Position numbers and translations under genes: made by a program. 64,000 bases of DNA from Fragum whitleyi (taxonomy: Eukaryota > Mollusca > Bivalvia > Cardiida > Cardiidae): NCBI GenBank assembly GCA_948146395.1, contig OX411544.1, positions 96,397,232 through 96,461,231 on the forward strand, in the 5' to 3' direction. Positions within the stretch are counted from its first letter, which is position 1. The number at the start of each line of letters is the position of its first letter. Below the pieces are notes generated by a model. That model searched no databases and was not told the origin of the DNA. It saw nothing but the letters and a program-made list of their open reading frames with translations. Below, piece by piece: positions 7,363-62,689 of the stretch.

Positions 7363-7451
7363 TTTCAACGTATAATTACTCTCTTTACGAAAATTCGAAA
7401 TTGGTCTAATATCAGTGTGTCATATCAGGTCTCGTGGTATCTCGGTGTCTT

Positions 7452-9222: not shown

Positions 9223-10212
9223 AGTTTAGAATAGCATGTTTTCGTGAAACAAGGAGAGAGTATACCACAGTTTCGATAAAATCGAGTATTGTTTGAAAAA
9301 ACGGGTATAATAAAATGAAGTTTAATCTAATTCTTCTAGACCCTAGAATAGCCTGTATATATTGTTGACATGGCAACGAATCAGATAAAAAGCAGGAAGT
9401 ATTGATGGGAAAATCAAAAGACATGAAACCTTTGTCATTCTACACAATATCGATGGTCGGAAAACCCGCGGAACGTCAGCATAGAACACGGTAGAGTTAC
9501 GATGTTTTGAGTGCCAATTAATCGTTAAGAGTTTAAACTATACCATGGCTTTAATGGAGCAAAGCTTTATTGCTGCCAGCTAACTCTTTGATATTTCGTG
9601 GTCGAAGGACGCATATGTGAAAGTGAGCATTTTGTACTGTAACGATATCTAACCGTTGGGCCTAAAAATATTCAATTCTAAATCTCTATATAGAATCGTA
9701 ATTAAGAGATAACACAAGAAATCGTCTTTTGATGGCTTAATATTGGTAAAATGATAACCACTTGGTATTATTACATTGTGATACCCGGAATGCAGAAAAG
9801 TATAACATCTTGGAACTAAGTAAAATGGGATTTATGAACGCCTCCAATTTTGGATTTTCTATGCCCGGTGCAATAGCTCAAAGCCCGGACTTTCTAAGCA
9901 ATTTTAATGTTATTCAATTGCAATGTAAGTGTATACGCAAAACACACATGTATAATGATTCGCGTACAGAAACATAGAAACGTAGGAACGACGTGGAAGA
10001 ATTTTGCGTGCGTTTCAAACAATTCTTCTCTGGATTTTCTGTTTCTAAAAACTAACTTTTATTTTATCTTATATTCACATTTCTTCTAACGTATTTGTTT
10101 GCGTAATGATACGCAGGTTTGTATGGGAAACGTGGATGAATTGATTAAAATACGCGTATCATTCTTCAAAAAATCCATGAGAAATATGTGCGTGTAATAA
10201 ATAATCAAAGAT
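9223..10212. other. No gene seen
   Basis: Short open frames only, without recognisable domains. There are no strong repeats apart from recurrent TTACGCG/CGCGTA-like words near 9940-10200. Confidence 0.5.
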
Positions 10213-12016
10213 AGTTTTTAGAAGAAGAAAGTCTTGAGAAGAATAGTTTGCGAACGTATGCACAATTTTTCCACGTTGCCCTTACAAATCTGCGTATCTT
10301 TAGGCAAAAAAATCCAATCTGTACGCGAAACATCAGTTCCGTGAATTTTGTATTACATGTAAAACGTAAGTGAATAATGCTCAGTATCTCTACGCAGAAA
10401 ATCCGGGGATGGAGCTGTCGGAACAGTTCATACCTGAATATGGATATTTATAAAAGAGATTGGGTCCGTAGAGGTCAACCGGAGTTCGCATTTCAAAAAA
10501 TCCTGCAGAAAGATAGAATAATTATATCAAATTCAGACGTCAGCTAAGTGTGCAAAAATTTCGACCCTAGTCAGCCTATGCGTACTGCACAGTCTGGCTG
10601 GTATCGGAATGTAACACACTACCCAGACAACCATCTTCATGGAAAGACACAGATACATATAATAATCGAAGACTTGCAATCGATCAAACTGACTTTGTAT
10701 ACAAAATATTGACCAAGATCAATGCCCTGGCAGGGCGGAGTCTAAGTATCGGTTCATTGCATTTAAGGTTAAGGTAAGTCAGCTTTTATGTATAATTACT
10801 CAATTTAAAAGGTAGTCGCATTCTCTAAATCGAAAATTTGCAACCAAACCCTCGTAACTTCAGCTTGTACAAGCTGAATTTACGAGGGTTTGGTAACCAA
10901 ACGGTGAAATGTGTTCACTTTCGCTTAGCACGCGTATTCTCTTAGTTTTAAGATACAGTTATTTTCACGCGTTAACGACAAATGCCAACTTACGTTTGAG
11001 AGAACCCAAAATATTGAAAAGTTATTTCGCCAAATTACGTCACGGCTAAGCCACGCCCTGCCAGTTAAATAATTATACAGAATACACTCACTTAAGATAG
11101 TATTAAATTCGCTTCTAGTTTTTAGAAGAAGAAAGTCTTGAGAAGAATAGTTTGCGAACGTATGCACAATTTTTCCACGTTGCCCTTACAAATCTGCGTA
11201 TCTTTAGGCAAAAAAATCCAATCTGTACGCGAAACATCAGTTCCGTGAATTTTGTATTACATGTAACACGTAAGTGAATAATACTCAGTATCTCTACGCA
11301 GAAAATCCGGGGATGGAGCTGTCGGAACAGTTCATACCTGAATATGGATATTTATAAAAGAGATTGGGTCCGTAGAGGTCAACCGGAGTTCGCATTTCAA
11401 AAAATCCTGCAGAAAGATAGAATAATTATATCAAATTCAGACGTCAGCTAAGTGTGCAAAAATTTCGACCCTAGTCAGCCTATGCGTACTGCACAGTCTG
11501 GCTGGTATCGGAATGTAACACACTACCCAGACAACCATCTTCATGGAAAGACACAGATACATATAATAATCGAAGACTTGCAATCGATCAAACTGACTTT
11601 GTATACAAAATATTGACCAAGATCAATGCCCTGGCAGGGCGGAGTCTAAGTATCGGTTCATTGCATTTAAGGTTAAGGTAAGTCAGCTTTTATGTATAAT
11701 TACTCAATTTAAAAGGTAGTCGCATTCTCTAAATCGAAAATTTGCAACCAAACCCTCGTAACTTCAGCTTGTACAAGCTGAATTTACGAGGGTTTGGTAA
11801 CCAAACGGTGAAATGTGTTCACTTTCGCTTAGCACGCGTATTCTCTTAGTTTTAAGATACAGTTATTTTCACGCGTTAACGACAAATGCCAACTTACGTT
11901 TGAGAGAACCCAAAATATTGAAAAGTTATTTCGCCAAATTACGTCACGGCTAAGCCACGCCCTGCCAGTTAAATAATTATACAGAATACACTCACTTAAG
12001 ATAGTATTAAATTCGC
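10213..12016. repeat. Direct tandem duplication, two 904-bp units
   Basis: AGTTTTTAGAAGAAGAAAGT begins at 10213 and again at 11117, and every later landmark recurs with the same 904-bp offset. Reading both units side by side I found only a couple of substitutions, for example GTAAAACG/GTAACACG, so the event is very recent or is an assembly artefact. Each unit contains a 50-bp nearly perfect palindrome (10844-10893 and 11748-11797). No gene is evident in the unit. Confidence 0.9.
10844..10893. repeat. 50-bp palindrome in first 904-bp unit
   Basis: Arms CCAAACCCTCGTAA and TTTACGAGGGTTTGG enclose CTTCAGCTTGTACAAGCTGAA, so almost the whole 50 bp is self-complementary. The second copy is at 11748-11797. 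Confidence 0.8.
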
Positions 12017-12239
12017 TGATCAATGAGTAGCAGCCATTAGTAGTCGAGTATAAATCAACAGAGGGGGCGGCTATACGTAAAATGACCCTAATGGAACTCG
12101 TAAACACTGTAAACTAGTCTGCCACTTTCTACTAGCCTGTCTATTCCATTCAACTATTCAATATACTGGGTTCCAAAAAGAGTGTGCAATTTCATGTTTT
12201 GCTTTTCTCTCATTTTGGGTCTATAATACTTCACAAGTA

Positions 12240-13304: not shown

Positions 13305-13634
13305 TATCTTATAACTATACAAATATCCGTGTGAAAACATCCCGTATGATATTTTTTATGATATCACATAGATATTTTTAGAACAATAATATATTGCGGT
13401 TTTTTTTGTTTTTTGTTTTTTTTAACTTGCATTACTGTTCGAAACATCGACGAAAACAAGACAAATAGGGGTTATAAGATAAATATAATACATACTAAGT
13501 GTATTGTATGAAAAAAATATCTGACTCGGTTGTGAGAATTGATAATTGCCTCGGCAGAGCCTCGACAATGATCAATTCTCCCAACCTCGTTAGATATATT
13601 ATTTCATACAAAACACTAAGAATGCATTTTATTG
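13305..13634. mobile_element. Palindromic MITE, family M, copy 1
   Basis: Begins TTATCTTATAACTATAC. It contains a smaller hairpin (ATGATATCACATAGATAT) and then a ~160-bp palindrome: TAAGTGTATTGTATGAAAAA and GAGAATTGATAATTGCCTCG are mirrored by CGACAATGATCAATTCTC and TTCATACAAAACACTAAG. Copies M2 (50669-50995) and M3 (62690-63478, opposite orientation) share the layout. No coding capacity. Confidence 0.75.
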
Positions 13635-13887
13635 TAGCGACTCAAAACATTCCAATATATTACTGACCGGCATAAATTTGGAGGCGCGCGATATATTTTT
13701 TCAATTCTAAATGTCGATATTATATAAGGTCGTTTTTGCATCTAATTTGAGTCCACTCATTCAACATCGTTCACACATTATTCAAAAATTATTTCAAGAT
13801 ATTCTTAACTGAACAGACGACATTGGAAAATACACCAACAAAAAAAGCTACTGGCTACTGTCATTTTGATATCATACTAAGTACTAA
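13635..13887 (+). repeat. Dispersed repeat R2, copy 1, left part
   Basis: Begins TAGCGACTC and runs through CTGACCGGCATAAATTT to ATCATACTAAGTACTAA. It is collinear with 17106-17208 joined to 18053-18199. The repeat resumes at 14972 after an inserted element. No coding function is recognised. Confidence 0.75.
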
Positions 13888-14967
13888 CAAGAGGCCCAAG
13901 AGGGCCTGTATCGCTCCACTGGATTAAAAATCTCAAGATTTGAAAGAGAGATATTGAAAATAGAAGGTAATGAAAGTGAACAGCATTCAAAAGGAATTCT
14001 GACTTTTTCTAAGTTGAAACTAACTTATGAAGAAATGAACTTATTTAACTGATATGTAAAATTACAAGGAACAAAACTATGTAGATGTCACTTTGAAACA
14101 AGAGGACCAGAATGGTCCTAAACCGCTCACCTGAATTTTATTGATCGAGTGGATCTAATCCAATCCAAATTTCTTGAACAACTTTAGAAGAGGGTCACCC
14201 AAGGAAAATTCTGGTAAAGTTTCATTGAAATAAGCCTATTGGTTCAGGAGGAGATGTCGTTCAAAGATTTTGGGGTCAAAATAAGCCCTGCCCTACCACA
14301 CCCATATTTGGGGGTCAATCCAAATTTCTTGAACAACTTTAGAAGAGGGTCACCCAAGGAACATTCTGGTAAAGTTTCATAGAAATCAGCCCAATGGTTC
14401 AGGAGGAGATGAGGTTCAAAGATTTCGGGGTCAAAATAAGCCCCGCCCTGCCACGCCCTTATTTGGGGGTCAATCCAAATTTCTTGAACAACTTTAGAAG
14501 AGGGTCACGCAAGGAACATTCTGGTAGAGTTTCATTAAAATTGGCCTAATGGTTCGGGAGGAGATTCGGGGTCAAAATAAGCCCAGCCCTGCCACGCCCA
14601 TATTTTGGAGTCAATCCAAATTTCTTGAACAACTTTAGAAGAGGGTCACCCAAGAAACATTCTGGTAAAGTTTCATTGAAATCGGCTCAATGGTTCAGGA
14701 GGAGATGTCGTTCAAAGATTTTGGGGTCAAAATATGCCCCGCCCTGCCACGCCCATATTTGGGGGTCAATCCAAATTTCTTGAACAACTTTAGAAGAGGG
14801 TCACCCAAGGAACATTCTGGCCAAATTCCATCAAAATCCACCCATTGGTTCAGGAGGAGAAGATGTTTAAAGAAAAGTTTACGCACGCACGGACGGACGG
14901 ACGGACGGACGCACGCACGACGGACACCTAGCCATGACAATAGCTCGCTGGCCTTCGGCTAGTGGAG
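13888..14967 (+). mobile_element. Mollusc-type element with five ~145-bp tandem units
   Basis: Opens CAAGAGGCCCAAGAGGGCC, contains a second AAGAGGACC-type start near 14098, then five tandem units (GAACAACTTTAGAAGAGGGTC, GTTCAGGAGGAGATG, CCCTGCCACGCCC). It closes with a CGGACGGACGGACGG stretch and GCTGGCCTTCGGCTAGTGGAG. It splits repeat R2 and is flanked by CTAA on both sides (13884-13887, 14968-14971), the likely target duplication. The frame through 14690-14962 is a translation of the repeat. Confidence 0.8.
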
Positions 14968-14971
14968 CTAA

Positions 14972-15600
14972 AAACCGACTGTTCAGAATACTATATATCA
15001 TCTTCCTTTGATGCTTAATATTGTTCTTTTCTGGTCATATCTATAGGGCTTCACGAACCTTTAATACAAACAACATTTTGTTGGACCAATCTAATTATGT
15101 TGCAGACTTGTTCGACATCGTACAACATAACAACGAAATTATTTCCGCCAATTACTCCGTCCCTGGACTGTTATGGTCGTGTAACTCTAAACATAATTAT
15201 TAACGGTTTGTTTTTGTGGCATATTTCTACCAAGAGATAAGACATAGTAAAAAGCTATGATTTTGAACTATAAATAAAATCGCGAAAATAGGAACTGTCA
15301 AAATAAAATCAAATTTGTGCTCACAGAATACAAAACTTCATCGAAGCAGCATCTCAATCTGTGTGTAGATGCTTATATGTTGCTAGAAATCTCTATGTTC
15401 CTTGACCACTATTGGCGCATCGCTCAGACTTTTCCGTAAACTGAAAAAGTACCTTGGACGTAAGTGTGGTTTTTTTCGGTAGATTTTTAGGTAATTCGGC
15501 TCCTGGTGGTACCTCGGTGAAAAAAATATTTTACGGTCTTCTATAGAGATATTATGGGCATATAATAATAAGATGACAAGACGTTTCCAAATTATGGTAT
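14972..15600 (+). repeat. Dispersed repeat R2, copy 1, right part
   Basis: Collinear with 29954-30800, apart from a MITE present only there. It includes a 60-codon open frame (15021-15203) whose counterpart at 30025-30207 is also intact with a few residue changes. Intactness over 60 codons is weak evidence. The end contains GGTAATTCGGCTCCTGGTGG, a block shared with element R3. Confidence 0.75.
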
Positions 15601-16111
15601 ATGTACACTTGGCCTATGTTCTAACACCGTTTTTAGATCTGGACTTTTCTCACATACATCACCCGATTTCATTGAAAATTTTACTAAGGCCCTCCGACAT
15701 AAATGACTTTTGATTAATGCTAATTATAGCGTGTCAACGTGTTTTTGTTGCTCGTTTACACAGAGGAGCTTGAAAACAGCAATGGCTCACGTGCATGCTG
15801 AGTTGTTTTTTCAGTAGTAAAGTTAAATAACCAATGTGTAGCCTGTCGATTAAGAGTCCGAAAAAACAAACAAAAACTGTTTAGATATCAATAGAAGACA
15901 GAGTAAAAGACTTTCGATCGGATCTGAGGTTGCTCCACTTGCTTATGGGTCGCCAGTCGAAAAGGTTCTGTTAAGGTAATTAGGTTATATTCAGCAACAA
16001 ACACAGAGTGGATATCGACGAAACTTCTGCTCACATTCACAAGGCGTTAGTTGTCTCAAAGCCATCACAAATCCGAGATATTGACTCTCTTGAAATCCAG
16101 AACAGACAACT
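15601..16111. other. No gene seen
   Basis: Unassigned sequence without recognisable coding or repeat structure. Confidence 0.5.
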
Positions 16112-16816: not shown

Positions 16817-16892
16817 TGCCGCCACCGGGGATCGAACCCACGACTTCCAGATTGGAAGTCTTATGCCTAACCAACTGCGCTATGGTGGCGGC
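16817..16892 (-). tRNA. tRNA-like gene or SINE head
   Basis: On the minus strand a 75-nt segment opens GCCGCCA and closes TGGCGGC, a perfect 7-bp acceptor stem followed by A. The B-box GGGTTCGATCCCC and an A-box-like TAGCGCAGTTGGTTAGG are present. The D-arm and anticodon arm do not fold canonically: ACTTC/GAAGT closes a loop lacking the usual U33, while an alternative pairing would give a weak UCC anticodon stem. I therefore favour a tRNA pseudogene or SINE promoter over a working tRNA. Confidence 0.5.
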
Positions 16893-17105
16893 AAAGAAAG
16901 TTTAAAATTTACCTTGTAAAACAACATTATTGATTGTCTTAAAACGTAAGGTTCACTCAAACGTGTACTTTCATAAATTCAGTGAAGTGGTTAGTTTCAA
17001 TTCCTATCATTTGCCTTTTAAATACACCCGATTTACCTATGATAATGGACTCAGTGCCTACGTCAGAGCTCAGTTAATACACCTATAAGTATGTATTATA
17101 TATGT

Positions 17106-17208
17106 AGCGACTCATTCCAAGATATTATTGACCGGCATAAATTTTGAGGCGCAAGACCTTTTTTTTCAATTCTAAATGACGGTATTATACGAGTTCGTTT
17201 TTGCATCT
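17106..17208 (+). repeat. Dispersed repeat R2, copy 2, left end
   Basis: Begins TAGCGACTC and is collinear with 13635-13743. It is interrupted by a LINE fragment after GCATCT. The repeat resumes at 18053. Confidence 0.8.
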
Positions 17209-17895
17209 GTCCTAAATATTACTAAAAAGAAGAAAAAGATTTCTTTTGATTACAGGCTACACGGACAAGTGCTAGAGACTGTGGACAATGCCAAATACCT
17301 AGGTGTTACTATATCTGAAGATCTTTCCTGGAACAAGCATATTGACAATATAACATCTAATGCAAATAAAACTTTAGGTTTTCTCCGCAGAAACATCCAG
17401 ACCAAAAATAAGAAGATCAGAGAAACAGCATACAAAACACTGGTTAGACCCCAGGTAGAATATGCATCAACTGTTTGGAGCCCATACACAACATCCTATA
17501 TCAACAAAGTAGAAAAAGTACAACGTAGAGCAGCAAGATGGGTTCAAAATAATTTTTCTCATTATGACAGTGTCACCTGCATGCAGAAGGATCTTGGCTG
17601 GCAAACTCTTCAATATAGACGAGACATCACCAGAGTCACCATGTTTTATAAAATTGTGAATTGTTTTGTTGCAGTACCCATACCAACTTATCTTGAAAGA
17701 CCAGTTAGGATCACCCGACATACGCACACAAAATCTTTTAGACAGATCCACACAAATGCTTCCTACTTTAAATATTCTTTTTTTCCTTATACAGTGATAC
17801 TTTGGAACAGCCTACCAGAAACCATCATACAGCAACCTGATATTGCCGCATTCAAGAAGAGTCTTGATTCTTTTCAGATAGTGAGCCGTCCCTGA
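17209..17895 (+). pseudogene. LINE reverse transcriptase C-terminal fragment
   Basis: An open frame joined to flanking codons encodes the region just after the polymerase fingers and palm of a jockey/CR1-like reverse transcriptase: AKYLGVTISEDLSWNKHI, LVRPQVEYASTVWSPYT, VQRRAARW and LWNSLPETI, all typical of this class. The catalytic motifs upstream are absent, so the protein cannot be active. The frame is free of stops, which suggests the insertion is fairly young. The visible ATG at 17176 lies in the target repeat and is accidental. Confidence 0.85.
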
Positions 17896-18052
17896 ATAAC
17901 CAAAATTGTTTTACCAGATCTTTTAATCTAACACTCACAATACTTTTAAAATTTGGCACCCTAACCAATGACTAACAGTTTTTATTCCAGCACAGACGCG
18001 CACCTGCCAGTAATACCCGAAAGGGGAGTCAGGCAGTATATATAGATAGATA
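17209..18052 (+). mobile_element. 5'-truncated LINE, 3' end only
   Basis: An 844-bp insertion flanked by GCATCT on both sides (17203-17208 and 18053-18058), with the empty site preserved at 13738-13743 in the other R2 copy. It ends in an ATATATAGATAGATA tail, as non-LTR retrotransposons made by target-primed reverse transcription do. The insertion occurred on the plus strand and only the last ~230 codons of the polyprotein survive. Confidence 0.9.
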
Positions 18053-18199
18053 GCATCTAATTTGAGCCCACCAATTCAACGTCGTTCACACACCATTCAA
18101 AAATTATTTCAAGATATTCTTAACTAAACAGACGACATTGGAAAATACACCAACAAAAATAACTACTGGCTACTGTCATTTTTTGATATCATACTAACT
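18053..18199 (+). repeat. Dispersed repeat R2, copy 2, middle part
   Basis: Continues R2 from the LINE insertion to CTAACT (18194-18199), where the large foldback element begins. Confidence 0.8.
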
Positions 18200-18684
18200 T
18201 ACGGACTCCTTTTCCCGCCGGCCTATTTTCGACCTAGCTACAGGTAGAAAAATCGAGATTAGTTCCACTAATTTCGTTTTTATAGCTAAAATATTACCTC
18301 GAAAAGTCGAAAAGTCGCCGTTTTTCACCTGACAATTGTCAAAGAAACAGCGAGTATTCGACCTAAAACTTACTTAGAAAATTCGAGATTAGGGCCACTA
18401 ATTTCGTTTTTTCTTAGTAAAAAATTACCTCGAAAAGTCGAAAAGTCGCCGTTTTTCACCTGACAATTGTCAAAGAAACGGCGAGTTTTCGACCTAAAAC
18501 TTACCTAGAAAATTCGAGATTAGTGCAACTAATTTCGATTTTTCTAGGTAAAACATTCTCACGAAATGTCGAAAAGTCGACGTTTTTCACCTGACAATTG
18601 TCAAAGAAACGGCGACTTTTCGACCTTAAACTTACCTAGAAAAATTGAGATAAGGGCCATTAATTTCGTTTTTTCTAGGTAGGA
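18200..18684 (+). repeat. Left terminal inverted repeat, hairpin ladder
   Basis: About four subunits of ~115 bp. Each contains one hairpin built on CGCCGTTT...TGACAATTGTCA...AAACGGCG inside GTCGAAAA/TTTTCGAC arms, and a second built on CCTAGAAAA..GATTAGT..ACTAATTTCG..TTTTCTAGG. Individual quirks, such as the ACATTC.CACG in the third spacer, recur in the matching position of the right repeat. The two ends are therefore homologous along their full length and not merely made of the same satellite. Confidence 0.85.
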
Positions 18685-21600
18685 CAATCTAGACGGGGTT
18701 TAGTGCATAGCACCGGTTGAAGCGGTGTAACAGTAAAAACTCTCTACACACCGGTAATTTCGTCGTAAACCTAAAAATCCAAAGCGTTTTGGTCGTAAGA
18801 ATTCTAAAGAGGTTGTATTAAAGTAGTTCCGGCCGAAAATGTACCGGTTTTCACCGATCATTTTCATATGGCGTCCATGGCCAAGAATTTGCCCCGCATC
18901 TCTGGCGATCGCTAGGCAGGTTACCAAATCTCGAACGGCGATTTTGGACTCAGTAGTCGTTGCTAGGCCGGCAGTGGGCCGATCGCGCCGAGGCGAAATG
19001 TTCACGGAGGTGAGACACTCGGTGCAGGGCTCGAACCTATACACCGATCCCTATGTTGTAGGTACCCTCGTGTTGCTCTAGTCAAGCCCTACAATCGTGG
19101 CGAGTTTGCTTGGGCTGCCGCTCAGTAAAAGCAGCGGAGCTAGAGCGATTCGCGCTGGAGCCGCGCCTCGCCCCGGTCGAGCCGCTATTTTAGTGGCGCA
19201 GCCGGAATGCAGCTCTGCTCTTTGCTCCGATCACCCAAAATTTGCCGCGGCCCGCATCTCTATCGATCGCTAGGAAGGTTACCGGCCCTCGAGCGGCGAT
19301 TTTGGACGGCTCAGTAGCCGTCGCTAGGTCGGCAGTGGGCCGATCGCGCCGAGGCAAATTTTCACTTGAGTGAGACACTCGGTGCAGGGCTCGAACCAAT
19401 GCACCGATCCCTATATTGTACGTACCATCGTGTTGCTCTAGTCAAGCCCTACGATCGTGGCGAGTTTGGTTGGGCTGCTGCTCAGTAGGCCTACGGCAGC
19501 GGAGCTAGACTGATTCGCGCTGGAGCCGTGCCTCGCCGCGATTTTAGCGGTGCAGTGAATGAGGCTCTGCTCTCGAAGCGTAGTTTTGCTTTCAGCACCA
19601 AGAACGGGTTAGCCCCGCATGTCTGTCGATCGCCAGGCAAGTTTCGGGCCCTCGAGCAACGATTTTGGATGGCTCATAACCGTCGCTAGGCGAAATGTTC
19701 ACGGGAGCCTGAGACACCCGATGCGGGGCTCTAACTAATGCACCGATCCCTTTGTAGGTAGGCTAGTGTTGCTCCACTCCAGCACTACAATCGAGGCTAG
19801 CCTAGTTGGCAGGGCTTTTAGCGGCCGCTCTAGATCGATTCGCGCTGATGTCGCTAGGACTGATGCCTGCCGAGCTGGATTATGCCTGCCGATCTGGATT
19901 TTTTAGAGGCGCTACAGCCGTAGCTCGGCCCCCAGTGGGCCGATCGGGACAATCTTGGTGTCTACGCGTTCATCTCGACGAGCTATACGATCGGGGAGAG
20001 TTTCGCATCTCCATCCTTCTCACAGGCGAAAATCGTGTTTTCGGCGCCCCGACCAAAATGTACAGTTGCTGGGTCTGAATTGCTCGACGTCGATCGCCTC
20101 TGGATCTCGGTCTCTTCCATCGAGGCTAGTTTGGCGGACCGAGCTCATCTTTGGTCGGAGAAACGCGAATACGGGTCCTGGGGCGCATGAGCATGGTGGC
20201 CGTCGCTGGGTATCGTCTCTTGGCCGAGCCAAAGCGCCGATCGAGTCGATCATTGTACGCTCTTGTTGCTCCCCTCAAGCACTACAATCGTGGCGAGTTT
20301 GGCGGGGCTGCTGCGATTAGCGGCCGCGCTAGGGCGCTCTAGAGCGATTCGCGGGAATGTCGCAAGGGTGCCGGCCGAACGGCGCTTTTCAGAGGCGCTA
20401 GGGCCGAATCTCGGCCCCCTGTTGGCCGATCTGGACAATCTTGGTGTCTACATGTTCGTCTCGACGAGCGCTGCGATCAGGAAGAGATTCGCACCTCCAT
20501 CCCATCCACAGGCGAAAATCGTGATTTCGGCGCCCCGACCGAAATGTGCAGTGGCTGGGTCTGGATTGCTAGACGTCGATCGCCCCTAGATCTCGGTCTC
20601 TTCCATCGAGGCTAGTTTGGAACGCGAATACGGGTCCTGGGGCGCATGAGCATGGTGGCCGTCGCTGGGTATCGTCTCTTGGCCGAGCCAAAGCGCCGAT
20701 CGAATCGATCATTGTACGCTATTTTTGCTCCACTCAAACACTACAATCGTGGCGAGTTTGACGGAGCTGCAGCTATAAGCGGTCGCTTTAGAACGATACG
20801 CACTCATGTCGCTAGGGTGCCGGCTTAGCGGCGCTTTTAAGAGGCGTAACGGCCGAAGCTTGGCCCTCAGTGGTCCGATCGGGACAATCTTGGTGTCTAC
20901 GCGTTCATCTCGACGAGCTATACGATCGGGGAGAGTTTCGCATCTCCATCCTTTTCACAGGCGAAAATCGTGTTTTCGGCGCCCCGACCAAAATGTACAG
21001 TGGCTGGGTCTGAATTGCTCGACGTCGATCGCCTCTGGATCTCGGTCTCTTCCATCGAGGCTAGTTTGGCGGACCGAGCTCATCTATGGCCGGAGGAACG
21101 CGAATACGGGCCCTGGGGCGCATGAGCATGGTGGTCGTCGCTGGGTATCGTCTCTGGGCCGAGCCAAAGCGCCGATCGAGTCGTTCATTGTACGCTCTTG
21201 TTGCTCCCCTCAAGCACTACAATCGTGGCGAGTTTGGCGGGGCTGCGGCTATTAGCGGCCGCTCTAGAGCGATTCGCGGGAATGTCGCTAGGGTGCCGGC
21301 CGAGCGGCGCTTTTCAGAGGCGTTACGGCTGAAGCTCGGCCCCCTGTGGGTCGATCTGGACAATCTTGGTGTCTACATGTTCGTCTCGACGATCGCTACG
21401 ATCAGGGAGAGATTCGCACCTCAATCCCATCCACAGGCGAAAATCGTGTTTCCGGCGCCCCGACCGAAATGTGCAGTGGCTGGGTCTTGATTGCTCGACG
21501 TCGATCGCCTCTGAATCTCGGTCTCTTCCATCGAGGCTAGTTTGGCGCACCGAGCTCATCTATGGCCGGAGGAACGCGAATACGGGCCCTGGGGCGCGTG

Positions 21601-22261
21601 AGCAGAGTTTCCGTTGCCGGGTAACGCCGCTGGGTCGAGCTAAGGCGCCGATCGAGTCGATCGTGGTACGCTCTTGTTGCTCTCCTCAAGCACTACAATC
21701 GTGGCGAGTTTGGCAGGGCTGCGGCTATAAGCGGCCGCTCTAGAGCGATTCGCGGGAATGTCGCTAGGGTGCCGGCCGAACGGCGCTTTTCAGAGGCGCT
21801 AGGGCCGAATCTCGGCCCCCTGTTGGCCGATCTGGACAATCTTGGTGTCTACGTGTTCGTCTCGACGATCGCTACGATCAGGGAGAGATTCGCACCTCCA
21901 TCCCATCCACAGGCGAAAATCGTGTTTTCGGCGCCCCGACCAAGTGTACAGTGGCAAGGTCTGGATTGCTAGACGTCGATCGCCTCTGGATCTCGGTCTA
22001 TTCCATTGAGGCTAGTTTGGCGGACCCAGCTCATCTATGGCCGGAGAAACGCGAAAACGGGTCCTGGGGCGCATGAGCATGGTGGCCGTCGCTGGGTATC
22101 GTCTCTTGGCCGAGCCAAAGCGCCGATCGAGTCGATCATGGTACGCTATTGTTGCTCCAACAATCTTGGTGTCTACGTGTTTGTCTCGATGGGCTCTACA
22201 ATCGGGGAGAGGCGAGTTTGGCGTTCCCAGCTCGTCCATGGCCGGAGAAACGCGAATACGG
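18685..22261. repeat. GC-rich tandem array inside the foldback element
   Basis: The block ACAATCGTGGCGAGTTTGG recurs near 19091, 19451, 19787, 20284, 20743, 21218 and 21694, giving units of about 336-360 bp at first and 459-497 bp later. Other shared words are CTCTAGAGCGATTCGCG, GACAATCTTGGTGTCTAC, ATCTCGGTCTCTTCCATC and CGAGCCAAAGCGCCGATCGA. It is strikingly GC-rich in an AT-rich window. Several overlapping frames of 60-150 codons exist on both strands, but they repeat with the array and match no family I know. I treat it as non-coding. Confidence 0.75.
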
Positions 22262-24420
22262 GTCATAACTTGGAGTCCATAAAATACTTCTTTCAATCTG
22301 TACCATAACCATTTAGAGTGCTAATAGGATTAGTTTAACGTTCTTTAACAATTTGGAGTCTATAAAAAAGTTCTTTTAATCTTTACTATCATATTAAGGG
22401 TACAAATTTGATTAATCCAATGTTTTTTTTTTAAAGAATTTGGAGTCCATTCAATACTTTTTTATACCTGGGCCATAACTCTTTAGAGTACTAAATTGAT
22501 TATATCAATGTTCTCCAACAAATAAGAATCATTAAGATACTTCTTTAAATCCGTTTCATCACTCTTTAGAAAATTAATTTGATTATTTCAATGTTCTTAT
22601 AGAATTTAGAGTCCTTAAAATATTTCTTTCAACCTGTACCATAACTCTTTTGAATGCTTATTTGATTATTTCAATGTTCTTTGATAACTTGGAGTCGATG
22701 AAATGTTCTTTAAGAATTTGGAGTCCATTCAATTCTTCTTTATATCTGGTCCATAACTCCTTAGAGTACTAAATTGATTATTTCAATGTTCTTCAACAAA
22801 TAAGAGTCAATAAGATACTTCTTTAAATCTGTACCATCACTCTTTAGAAAACTAATTTGATCTTTTTTTATGTGATTATTTCAATGTTCTTTAACAATTT
22901 GGAGTCCGTAAAATATTTCTTTCAATCTGTACTATAACTCTTTGAGTGCTTATTTGATTATTTCAATGTTCTTTGATAACTTGGAATCGATTAAATACTT
23001 CTTAAAATCTGCATCGTAACTCTTTATAGTACAATTTTGATAATTTCAATGATCTTTAACAATTTGGAGACCTTCAAATTTTTCTTTCAAACTGTACCAT
23101 AACTCTTAAGAGTGCTTTTTTGATTATTTCAATGTACTTTTACAAGTACAGGTCGATTGAATTCTTCTTTGAATAAGTACCATAACCCTTGAGATTACAA
23201 ATTTGATAATTTCAATGATCTTAAGCAATTTGGAGTCCATTAAAAACTTCGTTCAGTCTTTACTGCTTAGAGTAGTTATTTTATTATTTCAAAATTCTTT
23301 AAAAATTTAGAGTCCATAAAACACTCTTCAATGTGTAAAATATCTCTTTAGAGTACGTTTTTTATCATAATGATGTTTTTTACCATTTCGAGTCAATTTT
23401 ATTCTTCTTTCAATCTCTACTATAACTCTTTAGAGTGCTTATTTGATTAGTTTAAAGTTCTTTGATAATTTGGAGTCCATTAAAAAGTTCTTTTAATCTG
23501 TACCATCATTCTTTAGAGTACTAATTTGATAAATTCAATGTGTTTTAACAATTCGGAGTCCATTGAATACCTCTTTCAATCTTTACCATAACTCTTTTGA
23601 GTGCTGTTTTGATTATTTCAATGTTCTTTATTAACTTGGAGTCCATTACATACTCCTATCAATCTGTACCATAACCATTTAGAGTGCTTATTAGATAAGG
23701 TTATGTTCTTTGATAATTTGGGGTCCATTAAAAAGGTCTTTTAATCTGTACCATCACTCTTTAGAGTACTAATTTGATGTGTTTTAACAATTTGGAGTCC
23801 ATCAAATACTTCTTTATATCTAGTCCATAACTCTTTCGAGTTCTAAATTGATTATTTCAATGTCCTACTACAACTAAGAGTCATTAAAATACGTCTTTAA
23901 ATCTGTATCACCACTCTTTAGAAAACTAATTTTATTATTACAAAGTTCTTAAGCAATTTGGAGTCCATGAAATACTTCCATCAATATGTAAAATAATTCT
24001 TTAGAGTACTTTTTTTTATCATATTGATCTTCTTTTAAAATTTGGAGTCAATTTAATACTCCTTTCAATCTGTACCATAACTCTTTAGAGTGCTTATTGG
24101 ATTATTTCAATGTTCCTTTACAATTTTGAGTCTATTACATACTTTTTAATTTTATACCATAACTCTTTAGAAAACTGATTAAATTATCCTATCGTTCTTA
24201 AACCATTCGGAGTCCGTTAAATATTTCTTTCAATCAGTACCGTAACTCTTTGGAGTCCCTTGTTGATTATTTCAATGCTCTAAATAACTTGGAGTCCATT
24301 ACATACTTCTATCAATCTGTACCATAACCATTTAGAGTGCTTATTAGATATGTTTTTATCTTCTTTGACAAGTTGGAGTCCATTTTTATCTGTTCAATCA
24401 TATTTAGCGTACTAAGGACG
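22262..24420. repeat. AT-rich satellite, ~84-bp units, about 25 copies
   Basis: The motif AATTTGGAGTCCATTAAATA followed by TCTTTCAATCTGTACCATAA and CTCTTTAGAGTGCTAATTTG recurs at roughly 80-86-bp spacing, with occasional partial units (for example near 22720). Units differ considerably, so the array is old or was spread slowly. No open frame of note. It directly abuts the GC-rich array. Confidence 0.85.
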
Positions 24421-25809
24421 GGTCTCCATAAGGGCCTTTTCGTGGCTAGAATAGATTTCTTTTATACTTTTGCCATACGTTCTATGATATAATCTGCGTG
24501 TATTGACAAAATATTGGCATCTCAAACTTATTGGTTTTAGCTGTGCCTTGTGTTAAAAGTGGGTGGGGCAATTTACTTCGAACTTGAATTTCATTTTAAA
24601 ACTTTTTTATCACCCAAATTATTTACTTTTGAATTTGATGCTGCCACACTCCCCTTTTTTGTCTTAAGGGAATTTCTTTGTTTTATTTCCTACCAACTTT
24701 GCGGGTTTGCGCAACACGTTTACAAATAGCCTTGAATATCAAATTTCTTTTATTGATTGCAAAGAAAATACAAAACCATTGCCCCAAGGTTTTTTTCCGC
24801 GGAAATCAATACATTAGTTTTGGAGTTATCTGCCCCTGAATATGAGAAATTAGCAAAATTTAGCTTTAAACTGGCATTATCAAGCCAAAGTAAGATAGAT
24901 TTCAATGATATTTGGAATATTTGTTCCAACACATGAACTTATATGTGATTTAAACTGATATGTTTAAAAGGTCAACTTTCAAGGTCACATACCAAGGTCA
25001 AAATTAGCTCAAATTCGTCTTGTCAAGTGCATAACTAATTTATTTATCATTAGATTTTAAAGATATTTAGCACAGTTGTAACCCTTGATAAGCTAAAACA
25101 TATTTTGAAATGAACTTTTTGATAAGTTCGAGTTCAAGGCCAAATTTCAAGGTCAAATGTCAAAATAAGAGTAGTATATGCTATTGTAGATCCTAAAATG
25201 ATTATACAAGAGTGCCTCCGTTCATCAGCAAAAATGTGATACAAGAATAAAAATGCGATATGTCTAGGCTCAAGGTCACACATGAAGGTCAAATGTCAAA
25301 AAAAGCACAAATTCATCTTTACGATTGCATTTTTCATTAATTCATTGACAGACTTTAACAAAATTTGGCACAGGTATTACCAATCATATGTACACAGATA
25401 TTTTTAAATGAATTTAGTGATATGTTGATATTCAAGGTCACATATGAAGGTCAAATTTCAAAATAAGCATAAATCTGGCTTCACAAGTGCATTAATCATT
25501 CATTTATTGACATACAATCATAATATCTAACATAGTGGATACCCACATCAAGCAAAAAATATTTTGCAATGAATTTAGTGATAACTTGAAGTTGTGGTTG
25601 GTATCAGCTGTGTCAAATAGTGTTGAAATATATCAATAAATGAATGAGTAATGCACTTTTCAAGCCAAATTTGTGCTAATCTTGACATTTGACCTTCATA
25701 TGTGCCCTTGAACTTCAACATATCACTTAATGTACTGCAAGAAATTTTTGTGCATGTGATTGGTAAATATCAGTGCCAAATATTGTTTAAGTCTGCCATT
25801 AAATTATTT
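24421..25809. repeat. Degenerate 'AAGGTCA' tandem repeat region
   Basis: From about 24960 several ~180-bp units share TTCAAGGTCACATATGAAGG, TCAAAATAAGCACAAATTC and a TGACAGACTTTAACA-like stretch. A unit in reverse orientation occupies 25630-25800 (TTGACATTTGACCTTCATAT). This too is a repeat style I associate with mollusc genomes. 24421-24960 shows nothing recognisable. Confidence 0.6.
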
Positions 25810-26240
25810 GATAAGAGGACCATGATGGTCCTAGATCGCTCACCTGCGTCTCTTTGACCCCTGGGTCATCACATTAATTAAATAGACAGGTGTCAAAAAG
25901 GAGATAATTTATATAAGATCAACACCATGGAAATTTCTCAGCAAAGAACAAGACCGATATGTCTTTTTGCTCTTTGATTCTTTGTAAAAATACTGGTTTC
26001 AGAGAAGAAGATTTTCGAAGATTTCATATTTTCGACCTTTTTGTTAAGGGTAAAGGGAAAGGCAAGAGTGGATTTCATTTATTTGAACAACTTTGGTAGA
26101 GCTTGACCCAAGGAACATCCCTGCCAAGTTTCATCAAGATTAGTTTAGGAGGAGAAGATAATTTTAAGAAATTGTGGACGACGATCGACGCACGACGGGC
26201 ATTGTACGATCACATTAGCTCACCTTGAGCACTTCTAAAA
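25810..26240 (+). mobile_element. Short AAGAGGACC mollusc-type element
   Basis: Opens GATAAGAGGACCATGATGGT and ends near CTCACCTTGAGCACTTCTAAAA, with GACGACGATCGACGCACGAC before the end. It splits the reverse-orientation AAGGTCA repeat, whose remainder resumes near 26240 (GACCTTTGACCTTTATG). It is a short deletion derivative of the element at 46876-48007. Confidence 0.65.
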
Positions 26241-26379
26241 ATGCACTTGTTAAAATGAATTTGTGCTTATTTTGACCTTTGACCTTTATGTATGACCTTG
26301 AACCTAGACATATCACATACTTTTTTACTTGTATTACATATCTGAAAAATAGTCCCTTATGATGAAATATCTAAAAACT

Positions 26380-28600
26380 CCTTCTCTTAAACTACTCAAA
26401 ATCGACGAATTTTCACAGGAATGATGCTAAGGACATGCTTAGATATCTTTGATATCTTTAATTCCTAATAGGGCTGATGACATGGACTCTACTGACTGTC
26501 GTTTCGCGGAAAAATAGCACATTATGATGAGATATGAAATCAAAGCGCTAAAAGCGCTGAATGCCTGGTTTATAAAGAGACAAGGTGACGTTTGAAGGCA
26601 TGCACTCCAATTTTTTTAATCTTTTTAGCAAGGCTTTTTAAGGCGAGGGAAACCAAGGGATCGTAAGCCAGGGATCGTAAGCCACATTCATAACCCACTT
26701 CAAAGTGAAAATGTCGAACGGTATGCTCACTATATAGCACCCAGTCCGCAAAAAAAATAATTCCCAAGGTAAAGATTACCACGCCCGATACCGCTTTGCA
26801 GCCAGGTGCAACTAGCGTTTTCATAATTCTAGTTGAGTAGATTGGTCTTACAATCGTAGTAATGCTGTTTTTTCTAGGAGCACAAGCTCGTCGGCTCTTT
26901 CTTTTACATCGAATTGAATTCCATAAAGAAGTTGTATTTTACTGTGGGAACACAAGAAATTGATAGGGTCAATTCCTCCCTTTACCACAATATGGTCCAC
27001 CTTATACTCATACCCCATCATTTTTTAATTTCTACCGTAGATATATATTAAATTACAACCATGTTGATTTATTGTCTTCAACCTGTTCCAGGTTGGCCCA
27101 GTCTAAAATTTCATCGTCTGTTGAAGCGTTTTAAGATGGGACATCTATTAGATTAATCCATTACAAGACAACAAATGTTTAGACAAATCCAAATAATAAA
27201 GGGTTTCAGGCTACATGCAATATGTGGGCAAATTAGTAATATTTGTAGCAGAACAGGTAGATAATATTAGGAAGAAAGGAGAAAGTGTTTGTTAGCAGCA
27301 TTTTCTTCTTTTCCCTATTATCAAGGTCATCAAGATCAAATTTAAAAGCTATGTATCTTTAACACAGCTGTGAGTTTTGGCAGTGATAAGTAAGAAAATA
27401 TCTGGTTTACAGGACAAGGACATGGTGAATGATCAAGGTTATATTTCAGAAAATTGACCACGTGTTGTTTCGCCTATTCAGTTCCCTCGCCTTCAGTGCT
27501 ATCAGTACTTTGATTTAAGCGTAGTGATATGAAAGCACTGCGTTGAACACACAAATTACTTCGTGTCGAACAAACGTTGATGACGTATACTAGAACTATT
27601 TTTGGGCGCGTATGGGCACAAAAAGGCTACGTAGTACATACGTTGTTCGGTTTTTGACTCCATTATCTTTATCCGAGGCAATTTCCAGGATACAGGATTG
27701 TTTCCTATGGCCTGCTTAACCAGGCCAAAAACCTTCTTCTCTGACTATTGGTCAGAATTGGTCAAAAATTTTGGTTAGACTTTACCCTAACTGCACAAGA
27801 ATGTTCCTTTGGACATGCTCTTTAAACCGTCAAGGAAAAGGGGACTTTGTGATGCAAGAATTATTTTTATCACAACATGTAATGACAGATTTTCACGAAA
27901 CTTAAATGAAATGTTGCTCATCATATGGCTATAGGCATATTAAAGCTGCTTGGAAATATCATTCGATGTCTTAGAAAAGAGGGCATTCTATTGAAATTGA
28001 TGATATATGCTTATAAATAGATTAAATCTTAACTTAATATGTGTAAATACAATTAAGTTTTCAAGTTTCAATAATCATCTAGGAATTAAATGCCAAATAT
28101 TTTGATTGACCCCTAGTATGGGTGTGACAGTTTTTGACCCTGAAACATAAAACATCACTGCCGCACAAACCAGTCAGCCATTTTTAACCAAATTGACCAG
28201 AATGATCGGCCTGAATGGTCGACCTGAATGTTCGGTAGATGACCCTTTTTGATAATTGTTCATCAAACTATGATAGGCGCCAAAATATGCGGGTGGCAGG
28301 CAAGGGTATCTTTTGAATTTGAAACAACTATTAAACGTCACTCTCCTCCCAAACTCTTTGGCCAATTTTCGTCTTTTCAAAAGCTAGTTACTTCTGATTC
28401 ATTTAATATCATTCAGGTGAGCAATAAAGGACAATTAAGACTCCATTGTTTCAGTCTGTTGCCATTGCGACCAAAGTTCTGCAACAATTCCAATTCTGTG
28501 AAGTATTTATATCCATCAATTAGTTTCTGAAAAAATCCACCTATTACCATATATGGAAATTAGCCACGCCAACTACAGCCATGATTTTAAACCGATTAAA
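26380..28600. other. No gene seen, interior of foldback element
   Basis: Unassigned sequence. Open frames up to 93 codons (28249-28530) lack recognisable domains and are no longer than expected by chance here. Confidence 0.45.
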
Positions 28601-28795
28601 AATCTTTGCAGGAATCTGATAGAGGGTCACCCAAGGAACATTCCTGTAAAATTTGATTGGAATCCATCCAGTACTACTTTATGAGGAGAAGATTTTTAAA
28701 CTAAAAGTTTACGGACGGACGGACGCACGGACGACGGACACCCCGCCATGACAATAGCCCGCTGGCCTTTCGGCCAGTGGAGCTAAAAAGCGACT
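28601..28795 (+). mobile_element. Truncated GGACGGACGG-type element, 3' end
   Basis: Contains GAGGGTCACCCAAGGAACATT, the GGACGGACGGACGCACGG stretch and the terminal GCTGGCCTTTCGGCCAGTGG followed by AGCTAAAA, the same end as the element at 13888-14967. Only about one tandem unit is left. Confidence 0.7.
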
Positions 28796-29463
28796 GAGGT
28801 CAGTCTATTTTTCTCCTGTTCTTCCAACGTTTCAAAGCGGGACCCGTGGTAATTCTTTCAACTTGGAAAACGTTATTAAATTATAAAACGGAAAGATTTT
28901 CTATGATCGAAATTCTAAGTTTCCGAGATCCAGGTGAATAATAACAATATGAAAATATCAATGAACGATACCCGGGGAATACATGTATAATCTATTGTGG
29001 AAGTACAATCTGAATTGGACCTGGGGTAATTCTAGTATCATTTGAATCGCCATGAACTTAACCCGTGATTTTCTCTTTTATGGAAACACTAACTTTATGG
29101 GAACAGGGGTTATTTTAGCATCATTAAAATCGTCTGAACTTACCCGTGACGGGAATCTTCTCTATGAATGAAACACTAATCTTGGGCGTTTTTATGGAAT
29201 ATTCTGGCAATCTATAAGTGCAATTCATATTTTTTTCTCAATCAAAAGAGATATCTTTATTTGTATTCCACAAAAAAAAACGCAATTATATACGACATAA
29301 ATATGCATCGTTTATTAATAATTATGTTTCCCGGGGTATTCTCCGAGTTCCCGGGTTTTCCTGAGGTTTCCGGGTAAATAGTCAGTCCACATTTTAACGG
29401 TGTTAATGTCAAATATATTCGCGATTAAAAGGTACCGTACAAGTAGTCCTACCGAAAATATAT
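28796..29463. other. No gene seen, interior of foldback element
   Basis: Unassigned, with two degenerate repeats of AACTTACCCGTGA..GGGAATCTTCTCTATG-like sequence near 29040-29190. Confidence 0.45.
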
Positions 29464-29947
29464 CCTACCTAGAAAAAACGAAATTAGTGGCCCTAATCTC
29501 GATTTTTCTAGGTAAGTTTAAGGTCTAAAAGTCGCCGTTTCTCTGACAAATGTCAGGTGAAAAACGTCGACTTTTCGACTTTTCGTAAGAATGTTTTACC
29601 TAGAAAAATCGAGATTAGTTGCACTAATCTCAAATTTTCTAGGTAAGTTTAGGTCGAAAACTCGCCGTTTCTTTGACAATTGTCAGGTGAAAAATGGCGA
29701 CTTTTCGACTTTTCGAGGTAATATTTTACCTAGAAAAAACGAAATTAGTGGCCCTAATCTCGAATTTTCTAGGTAAGTTTTAGGTCGAAAACTCGCCGTT
29801 TCTTTGACAATTGTCAGGTGAAAAACGGCGACCTTTCAACTTTTCGAGGTAATATTTTTGCTATAAAAAACGAAATTAGTGGAACTAATCTCGATTTTTC
29901 TACCTGTAGCTAGGTCGAAAATAGGCCAGCGGGAATAGCATTCCGTA
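29464..29947 (-). repeat. Right terminal inverted repeat, hairpin ladder
   Basis: Mirror image of the left repeat with the same order of four subunits. The inner boundary is CTAGGTAGGA on both sides. The arms differ by scattered substitutions, so they have not been homogenised recently. Confidence 0.85.
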
Positions 29948-30800
29948 CTAACTACTAAAAACCGATTGTTCAGAATACTTTCTGAGCAGTCGATTTTAAG
30001 TCGATATCATCTTAATGTTAAACATTGTTCTTTTCTGGTCATATCTATAGGGCTTTACGAACCTTTAATACAAATAACATATTGTTGGACCAATCTAATA
30101 ATGATGCAGACTTGTTTGACATCGTACAACATATCAACGAAATTATTTCCGCCAATTACTCCGTCCCTGGACTGTTATGGTCGTGTAACTCTAAACATAA
30201 TTATTAACGGTTTGTTTTAGTGGCATATTTCTACCAAGAGATAAGACATAGTAAAATGCCATAATGCCATAATTTTAAACGATATATAAAATCGCGATAA
30301 AAAAAGTTTCCTATCAAATTTGTGCTCATAGAATACCAAATCTCGTCGAAGAAGCATCTCAATCTGTGTGTAAATGCTTATACAGTCAAACCTGTCTTAA
30401 GCAAGCACCCAAGGGACATTCAAAAGGTGCTTGCTTAAGACAGGTGCTTGCTTAGTATAGGTCAATTTCAGTGCAATTGGTTTATTTGGGAACGCAGCGA
30501 TCGCTTGCTTAATACAGGTTGCTTGTTGAATACAAGTGGCCACTAAGAAAGGTTGGACTGTATGTTGCTAGAAATCTCTATGTTCTTTGACCACTATAGT
30601 ACACCGCTCGGGCTTTTCCGTAAACTGAAAAAGTACCTTGGACATAAACGTGGTATTTTTGGGTTGATTTATAGGTAATTCGGCTTCTGGTGGTACCTCG
30701 GTCAATACGTTAGAAGGATAAAAAAATTACGGTCTACTATGGAGATATTGTGGGCATATTATAATTGGATGACAAAACGTTTCCAAATTATACTATTTGT
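29948..30800 (+). repeat. Dispersed repeat R2, copy 2, right part
   Basis: Resumes R2 after the foldback element with CTAACTACTAAAAACCGATT and is collinear with 14972-15600 except for a 178-bp MITE. The 60-codon open frame at 30025-30207 corresponds to that at 15021-15203. Confidence 0.75.
30383..30560. mobile_element. Tc1/mariner-type MITE with TA duplication
   Basis: The 178-bp insertion starts CAGTCAAACCTGTCTTAAGC and ends AAAGGTTGGACTG, flanked by TA on both sides. The other R2 copy has the empty site GCTTATATGTTGC. Inner direct and inverted GGTGCTTGCTTAAGACAGG words recur. There is no coding capacity, so it must have been moved by a transposase encoded elsewhere. Confidence 0.85.
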
Positions 30801-31489
30801 AGTTTTAATCTGCAGAAGCTGTTGTTATTATTCTTGTTGATGTTGTTGTTTTGTTTTATTTCAAAGTTTTCTTGGTGCTATTAACTCTCTGTATATATAT
30901 AACCATCGCCATTACCACACATATATATGCGCCTTTTTATCATTCTCGAGGTCAATTCCGTAGAACATTCGAGGGTTCCCGACTGCCTTGACCACTCAAT
31001 CAACATTCTCTTTCGCTTAACTTGGCATCTTAATTAATATAAGTATTCTTTTCCGAAGACATTTACTGATTCGGCTAATTTAGACATGTCTACCTAGGCA
31101 AAGGACCTAAAGAAATTTTATTACAAGAAAGAAAACCGATTCCCAGTGAATTTCCAAATAATTCGTTTCCTGTAATGCGCCTGTAATTGAATGATTTAGA
31201 TTAATGCTTCTACTAGGACGCGGTGAAATGATTTAGACGCAAATTAAAAGGCATGTTCTTCCAATTTGAAACAGGGGATAATAGCCATAGGACACAATCC
31301 GGAGAACTGACAACTCAAAACAGGATAGAAAATACGCTTTAGGGAACATAATGAAAATAATTTACACAGAAATTCATGGCACTTTTGTAAGTCAAAATTT
31401 AGAAAACGTTCAATGTCCTGATTTAGATTGACCAACTTAAGGTGGTGGACCTGGAATAGTTCTGCAATGTTTCGTAGGTTATGAACTAT
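30801..31489. other. No gene seen
   Basis: Unassigned, except for a short R3-like piece CATTCTCGAGGTCAATTCCGTAGAA near 30940. The open frame at 31244-31513 (minus) has no recognisable domain. Confidence 0.45.
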
Positions 31490-39582: not shown

Positions 39583-40581
39583 GAAATGTCGAAACTTTGT
39601 ATAAGGAAAACATCTCCTAGACGTTTCGAGTACCCCTGTGAAAAAAAATCGTAAACTTTATCAATGTCATGTGTAGAAGACAGTGGATGGAATCGAGCTG
39701 ATAGTAGATCATTTGACGATTCAAGCATGTCTCGGTATCTATTTATATGACTCGAGTCTACCTTGCGCCAATTAATTCGTTTCGTATCAGCCGAATTATT
39801 ACCCCCCTTTAATGAACCTGTTGTTTGTACGGATAACAACGTCACGATTGGTCTATGATCAGACACGTTTATACTACTGTCATCTAAAATTTCGCAGCTA
39901 GATATACAATCAATCTTTTCGATGGGAATTATGATATAATCAACATAACTAACGTTGCGTTTATCACGTGAGACGTAAGTATTTGTCGCACCGGTACAAA
40001 ACGGCTGAGTATTTACTGGAATACAGTTATTCATTTCTAATAAATCAAAGATCTCCCGTTGTCTAGGGGAGCTAGCAAGTGCTCGTGACGTAACAATTTT
40101 ACAATTTAAATCACCCATTATTATGACTGTACCGATTTCTGAGTAAACATGCCATAGGTCGTATAATTTAGCTATGTAGTCACGATACTTGTTAATGGAA
40201 TGATTCGTACATGGCATATATACTTGTATGAAAAAAAACGAATTCGTCAGGTGATAATTGATATTGAATGCCTATTATTCGGTCGTCGTCAATTGGTAAA
40301 GCGGAGATGCGATTATTGTGTTTTTTATGCCACATAATAGCAACGCCCCCTTTCCCAACTCTTCTGCTACGAGACTGCATATCTAAATCTTTATCAGTTA
40401 CAGCAAAGGCATGATAATTAGAGTCAATTTCGTTCAAAAAAATGGATATTTTGGGCTCCAACCAATGCTCTGATATCCCACAAATGTCTATAGATTTTTC
40501 AACAAAAATATCACTCAAATATGAAGAGCTAGACATATCTCCTGTAACATTCCATGTCATTATATTCAAGTTTATGATCAT
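39579..40581 (-). pseudogene. LINE APE-type endonuclease, frameshifted
   Basis: Two overlapping open segments joined across an A8 run encode an exonuclease-endonuclease-phosphatase fold that nicks target DNA. Visible motifs in order are NIMTWNV, DICGISEHWLEP, GGVAIMWHKK, then after the frameshift IIMGDLNC, YVDYIIIPI and NVSDHRPIV. All the usual active-site motifs (the Glu, GDLN, SDH) are still present, so the frameshift is probably the main defect. Confidence 0.87.
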
Positions 40582-62667: not shown

Positions 62668-62689
62668 ATTGGTTTAATATCAGCGTGTT

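What the first reader, a model, noticed from the sequence alone, without database searches (positions are those of the whole stretch)
18200..29947. Giant 11.75-kb foldback element with precise ends, target duplication and empty site
Seen directly: inverted ends beginning TACGGA, ~485-bp terminal inverted repeats, CTAACT on both sides, and a second genomic copy of the host repeat (R2) without it. The interior is almost entirely satellite-like, with no recognised transposase. Known elements with tandem-built long inverted ends (Foldback/Galileo, sea-urchin TU) are the nearest architectural analogues. A mobile unit carrying kilobases of two unrelated satellites would be an efficient way to seed satellite arrays around a genome. 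That last point is inference.
Basis: partly seen in the sequence, partly recalled or inferred. Interest (0 to 1): 0.87.

Follow-up and report, generated by a model that had tools for sequence, protein, structure and literature searches.

The report
IS3EU-like foldback transposon carrying satellites
An 11.7-kilobase stretch of a eukaryote genome is an inserted piece of mobile DNA whose mirror-image ends are built from repeated hairpin-forming units, whose tips match a little-studied transposon group (IS3EU), and whose inside holds two unrelated blocks of repetitive 'satellite' DNA; only one copy could be examined, so whether it spreads those satellites is unknown.

Summary
The element is real. 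Positions 18200 and 29947 are the tips of 485-bp terminal inverted repeats (TIRs), 94.65% identical, flanked by CTAACT on both sides. A paralogous host repeat in the same window (R2, 13617-15605) lacks it and has the target once, as CTAAGT, 4.3 kb upstream. R2 is not a clean empty site: an unrelated 1.08-kb Helitron-like insert starts 5 bp beyond the target. The interior is at most 53% satellite, not 'almost entirely'. None of its 83 ORFs of 50 aa or more has a convincing Pfam match (best E 0.01). Best reading: a non-autonomous IS3EU-like transposon with foldback-type TIRs, moved in trans. Satellite seeding remains untested, because all 15 genome searches did not complete.

The parts
18194..18199 (.). 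left target-site duplication CTAACT
   Evidence: read directly; single copy CTAAGT in R2 at 13877-13882
18200..18684 (+). left terminal inverted repeat: 24-bp cap beginning TACGGA, then ~3.3 tandem 131-bp units, each with two dyads
   Evidence: (DNA fold z = -12.75, 0 of 100 shuffles as good)
18690..22265 (.). satellite A block, GC 57.4%; units of 449-486 bp within 19758-22158, more diverged repeats before
   Evidence: no match at E<=1 outside the element in this window
22266..24415 (.). satellite B block, ~83-bp AT-rich units, median pairwise K2P 0.35
   Evidence: best match outside the element 22 bp, E 0.027; abuts satellite A directly
25234..26339 (.). palindromic module, interrupted by the next item
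25813..26236 (+). nested Helitron-like insert (AAGAGGACCATGATGGTCC ... AGCTCACCTTGAGCACTTCTAA)
   Evidence: relatives at 46880-47013 and 47789-47986, 76-77%; interrupts one palindrome arm; Helitron label recalled
28219..28789 (.). diverged Helitron-like minisatellite pieces
   Evidence: 68-77% to the minisatellite in the R2 insert, in both orientations; 3' end AGTGGAGCTAAAA shared with it
29463..29947 (-). right terminal inverted repeat
   Evidence: 94.65% to left TIR; alignment
29948..29953 (.). right target-site duplication CTAACT
   Evidence: read directly
13617..15605 (+). R2: paralogous host repeat without the element (carries its own insert 13888-14971)
   Evidence: matches 17086-17208, 18053-18197, 29955-29979, 30004-30382 and 30561-30801; junction

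Best explanation
One non-autonomous cut-and-paste DNA transposon of the IS3EU kind (TACGG...CCGTA termini, 6-bp TSD) inserted into one of two neighbouring copies of a host repeat. Its TIRs are of foldback type: a short cap, which I infer is the cleavage site, followed by a tandem array of 131-bp units each with two near-perfect dyads, which I infer are repeated transposase-binding sites, as reported for Galileo. A transposase supplied in trans would pair the two arms and move everything between them, so the element tolerates a large non-coding interior with two unrelated satellite blocks. Shown: ends, TSD, paralogue without it, TIR structure, terminal signature. Inferred: superfamily, trans mobilisation, binding-site role, arrival of the satellite blocks as cargo.
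For: TIRs; TSD; paralogue aligned across the junction, 70 of 76 columns. [quoted passage not shown] C. gigas satellite CgiSat47 (129 bp, Repbase label IS3EU, 7 of 10 and 9 of 10 chromosomes in two assemblies; PMC8268682, passages) shows that a satellite of about this unit length with IS3EU similarity exists in a bivalve. Each left unit is closest to the right unit of the same rank (93.9, 95.5, 94.7%), so the array existed before the arms last shared identity. Median satellite B K2P 0.35 exceeds R1/R2 K2P 0.066-0.144 and TIR-arm K2P 0.051, so most of that array is older than the insertion if rates are equal, i.e. it arrived as cargo.
Against: Only one copy seen; no transposase (83 of 83 ORFs of 50 aa or more scanned, best Pfam E 0.01 and 0.014, unrelated families; shorter fragments not scanned). 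No IS3EU sequence could be compared directly. The signature is five bases per end, and 7- and 8-bp TSD parses exist. The sequence of CgiSat47 was not seen; its AT content is 69.8% against 63% in these TIRs. The youngest satellite pairs (A 0.041, B 0.042) are as young as the TIR arms, so some array growth may post-date insertion. The cap differs between arms at 4 of 24 sites against 20 of 460 in the rest (Fisher p 0.025), so conversion between the arms may make the TIRs look too young. Left unit 2 is nearly as close to right unit 1 (93.2%) as to right unit 2 (95.5%), and right unit 1 is about as close to left unit 2 (93.2%) as to left unit 1 (93.9%). No compensatory change supports the dyads (0 of 39 pairs).
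Confidence: 0.66

Rival explanations
1. A much smaller foldback element inserted first; satellites A and B, the palindrome and the Helitron-like pieces arrived or expanded inside it afterwards, so the 11.7-kb unit as such never moved. (This overlaps with the best explanation: same transposon, different history of the interior.)
For: The piece at 25813-26236 is nested inside another module; youngest satellite A pair K2P 0.041 and youngest B pair 0.042, similar to the TIR arms at 0.051; the host copies also collected other inserts.
Against: Median satellite B divergence (0.35) and 5 of 6 satellite A pairs (0.10-0.15) exceed TIR-arm divergence; B also exceeds R1/R2 divergence. No other sequence separates A from B.
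Confidence: 0.25
2. A foldback element of the Mutator or P kind (as Tetris or Galileo), with a 7- or 8-bp TSD and one or two bases missing from one TIR tip.
For: Tandem-unit TIRs, no conserved ORF and a variable middle are Tetris anatomy (PMC4079207, abstract and two sections read); the longer TSD parses exist.
Against: It needs an asymmetrical tip; the symmetrical parse gives 6 bp and the IS3EU pentamer.
Confidence: 0.12
3. A decayed Polinton/Maverick, which also makes 6-bp TSDs and has TIRs of several hundred bp.
For: TSD length and TIR length fall in, and total size just below, the range given for intact vertebrate Mavericks (12.7-24.6 kb, TIR 46-1447 bp; PMC8097293, passages).
Against: End motifs reported there for vertebrate Mavericks ((AG)3 or (AGT)2) are absent; no polymerase, integrase or capsid match in 83 of 83 ORFs.
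Confidence: 0.03
4. Assembly artefact: two unlinked satellite arrays joined by a misassembly.
For: Satellite-rich stretches are prone to it (general knowledge); no reads were available.
Against: The two outer junctions form one continuous target found joined in R2, and left and right TIR units correspond rank by rank.
Confidence: 0.03

Closest known systems
IS3EU / GingerRoot DNA transposons
   Same: TA..TA termini, TAYGG..CCRTA pentamer, 6-bp TSD (PMC10045372, PMC12730594, passages); Styx, related to IS3EU, is about 7.9-8.2 kb with 6-bp TSDs (PMC10853768, passages)
   Different: no transposase recognised in this copy; 485-bp TIR built of tandem dyad units; large satellite interior. The passages I saw describe no IS3EU element of that build.
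Tetris (Drosophila virilis foldback)
   Same: long TIRs with internal ~220-bp tandem repeats, non-coding variable middle; repeats that became satellites (PMC4079207, abstract and two sections)
   Different: TSD 8-10 bp and suggested to be Mutator; its satellite grew from the TIR repeats, whereas here the two satellites are unrelated to the TIR unit
Galileo (P superfamily, foldback-like)
   Same: long internally repetitive TIRs; tandem repeats hold multiple transposase-binding sites (PMC3688188, abstract)
   Different: P-element transposase; different ends (recalled)
Oyster CgiSat47 satellite
   Same: 129-bp unit labelled IS3EU, on most chromosomes (PMC8268682, passages)
   Different: its sequence was not seen, so homology is untested; AT 69.8% against 63% here
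Bivalve Helitrons with central satellite arrays
   Same: mobile elements carrying satellite arrays between conserved ends (PMC8268682, PMC12628747, passages)
   Different: rolling-circle elements; this one has long TIRs and a TSD

Membership tests
IS3EU | TA..TA termini, TAYGG..CCRTA in published fungal families | tested here: met
   TACGG...CCGTA at 18200 and 29947; criteria
IS3EU | 6-bp target-site duplication | tested here: met
   CTAACT both sides; single CTAAGT in R2; 7- and 8-bp parses not excluded
IS3EU | IS3EU DDD/E transposase, in the element or in an autonomous relative with the same ends | tested here: inconclusive
   no convincing Pfam match in 83 of 83 ORFs of this copy; relatives could not be searched (15 unanswered genome searches; protein database off)
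IS3EU | sequence homology to a named IS3EU family | not testable with these tools
   no library of eukaryotic transposons on hand
Foldback-type architecture (Tetris, Galileo) | long TIRs containing tandem subrepeats | tested here: met
   485-bp TIRs with ~3.3 units of 131 bp
Mutator foldback (Tetris) | 8-10-bp TSD | tested here: inconclusive
   6 bp with symmetrical TIRs; 8 bp only if one tip lacks 2 bp
Polinton/Maverick | (AG)3 or (AGT)2 end motifs | tested here: not met
   ends are TACGGA; motifs from PMC8097293, stated for vertebrate Mavericks
Polinton/Maverick | polymerase, integrase and capsid genes | tested here: not met
   no match in 83 of 83 ORFs of 50 aa or more; heavy decay not excluded

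The most novel reading that the evidence does not exclude
A family of IS3EU-driven foldback elements in this lineage uses arrays of palindromic 131-bp units as transposase-binding ends and moves kilobase blocks of unrelated satellites as one unit. The ends themselves also escape as a dispersed satellite (of which oyster CgiSat47 would be a relative), so one transposon family seeds three satellites at once.
Probability: 0.2. Interest if true: 0.75.

Novelty: new variant of a known kind. Interest (0 to 1): 0.5.

Why it matters
How satellite arrays get dispersed is open. In oyster the described vehicle is mainly the Helitron (PMC8268682). An IS3EU element with foldback ends carrying two unrelated arrays would be a second, mechanistically different vehicle, and would extend foldback architecture beyond Mutator and P. 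It also makes a direct prediction about oyster CgiSat47 that can be checked in public assemblies.

Tried and rejected
Rejected or inconclusive. Coding interior: all 83 stop-to-stop ORFs of 50 aa or more in 18200-29947 were scanned against Pfam in two lots, 47 and 36; best E 0.01 (Imm32), 0.014 (DUF4395) and 0.017 (clitocypin-type inhibitor), taken as chance; pieces under 50 aa were not scanned. RNA gene: 11 weak Rfam matches in 17000-31000, none at its gathering score; one tRNA-Gly at 16817-16889, outside the element. Polinton: ends do not fit. Compensatory change in the dyads: 0 of 39 pairs in 6 units, too similar to tell, so the dyads rest on folding. Higher-order structure of satellite B: lag 14 was lower (mean 0.254, 8 pairs), not followed. 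Exact-pattern scans for TIR and satellite A motifs: 0 hits in genome contigs and viral contigs; these hold prokaryotes and viruses, so this says little.

Papers. Search with 'palindromic subrepeats' and related terms, 4 of 5 required: 0 papers. IS3EU with mollusc, satellite DNA, oyster: 5, 3 and 3 papers; I saw passages of PMC8268682, PMC5844308 and PMC9587614 and only the listing of the others. IS3EU with tandem-repeat and TIR terms: 101 papers holding 4 of 5 terms, 12 listed; of these 12 only PMC10853768 holds IS3EU. None of the passages I saw describes an IS3EU foldback element; the library is partial, so this is no proof of absence.
Full report
WHAT IS THERE. TIRs at 18200-18684 and 29463-29947 match as inverted repeats at 94.65% over 486 columns (alignment). 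CTAACT flanks both. Among the hits printed (the 120 longest of 227) no further inverted homology links the two sides inside the TIRs. Each TIR has a 24-bp cap and about 3.3 copies of a 131-bp unit. Each unit has two dyads; the left TIR folds as single-stranded DNA at -109 kcal/mol against a shuffle mean of -50.3, z -12.75, 0 of 100 shuffles as good. No compensatory changes were seen in six units (0 of 39 pairs), so selection on the dyads is not shown.

PARALOGUE WITHOUT THE ELEMENT. R2 (13617-15605) and R1 (17086-30801) are neighbouring copies of one host repeat. R1 carries three inserts: one at 17209-18052 (target GCATCT duplicated at 17203-17208 and 18053-18058; I read it as a 5'-truncated non-LTR retrotransposon from its ORF and TAGA tail, by recall only, as its ORF has no Pfam match), the 11.7-kb element, and a small CAGTC-ended insert at about 30383-30560. 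R2 has the target once (CTAAGT, 13877-13882) and, 5 bp on, its own 1,084-bp Helitron-like insert (13888-14971). With both inserts left out, R1 and R2 align across the junction at 70 of 76 columns. The insertion is therefore real and unitary at its outer ends; R2 is not a pristine empty site.

CHANCE AND ENDS. One TAYGG...CCRTA pair with equal 6-bp flanks, 60 bp to 20 kb apart, exists in the window, and it is this one; 20 shuffles give 0-4 such pairs each but at most 13 of 20 mirrored tip bases, against 16 of 20 here. TSD length is 6 bp if the TIR tips are symmetrical; 7- and 8-bp parses exist if they are not.

INTERIOR. Satellite A (18690-22265, 57.4% GC, units 449-486 bp) abuts satellite B (22266-24415, 27.5% GC, about 83 bp) with nothing between. 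CpG observed/expected is 1.22 in A, 0.45 in B and 1.7-1.9 in the TIRs, against 1.06 for the window. Outside the element the best matches in the window are chance-like: none for A, E 0.027 for B, E 0.25 for the TIR. From 24416 to 29462 there is a palindromic module, two stretches of Helitron-like sequence and otherwise unmatched sequence. The Helitron label rests on shared ends, a 3' hairpin and a CTAA end; that these are Helitron traits is recalled. None of the 83 ORFs of 50 aa or more gave a convincing Pfam match.

ORDER OF EVENTS. K2P: TIR arms 0.051 (0.034-0.072); R1/R2 0.066, 0.077, 0.140 and 0.144 in four blocks; satellite A 0.041-0.148 over six pairs of four units; satellite B median 0.354 over 231 pairs of 22 units, minimum 0.042 (4 of 26 stretches between 27 anchors were dropped for length, 112, 98, 43 and 41 bp). 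With equal rates most of B is older than the insertion and was carried in, while one A pair and a few B duplications are about as young as the TIR arms. The caps differ more (4 of 24) than the rest of the TIRs (20 of 460), p 0.025, which hints that the arms exchange sequence and look younger than they are. The confidence interval of the TIR arms overlaps that of R1/R2 in 2 of 4 blocks, so the order of those two is weak.

WHAT IT IS. Tips and TSD match IS3EU as published: TA..TA termini and usually 6-bp TSDs (PMC10045372, passages); TAYGG..CCRTA with 6-bp TSDs in families from seven rust fungi (PMC12730594, passages). GingerRoot shares the TSD and mostly the TA..TA ends. Foldback elements have mostly been placed in Mutator, with exceptions (PMC4079207, section read). 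In oyster, CgiSat47 (129 bp) and CgiSat35 (690 bp) carry the IS3EU label (table text), and CgiSat47 lies on 7 of 10 and 9 of 10 chromosomes in two assemblies. I did not see its sequence, and its AT content (69.8%) is higher than that of these TIRs (63%). [quoted passage not shown] I infer the same role here.

LIMITS. Copy number is unknown: 15 identical genome searches did not complete. Host assignment (bivalve-like) is my recall from the Helitron-like motifs and is not tested. That the element disperses satellites is therefore a hypothesis. The confidences given to the best and rival explanations overlap, since the first rival shares the same transposon.

Noticed in passing
13888-14971: Helitron-like insert with a 155-bp minisatellite, in R2 only 5 bp from the target that the 11.7-kb element used in R1: two unrelated inserts at nearly the same spot of two paralogues.
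   Followed up: partly
17209-18052: Insert with a TAGA-type tail and GCATCT duplication in R1; looks like a 5'-truncated non-LTR retrotransposon (recalled), though its ORF has no Pfam match.
   Followed up: partly
30383-30560: Small insert with CAGTC...GACTG inverted ends next to TA, absent from R2.
   Followed up: no
6458-7375 and 61763-62707 (minus strand): Two ORFs (306 and 315 aa) matching Ion_trans_2, in DNA 97.5% identical over 919 bp and 55 kb apart: a recent duplication.
   Followed up: no
37573-38868 and 39582-40271 (minus strand): Reverse transcriptase and endonuclease matches in broken frames: remains of a non-LTR retrotransposon.
   Followed up: no
22265/22266: Abrupt change of GC (57.4 to 27.5%) and CpG ratio (1.22 to 0.45) at a satellite-satellite junction.
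   Followed up: no
10212-12017: 902-bp direct repeat, 99.8% identical, head to tail.
   Followed up: no
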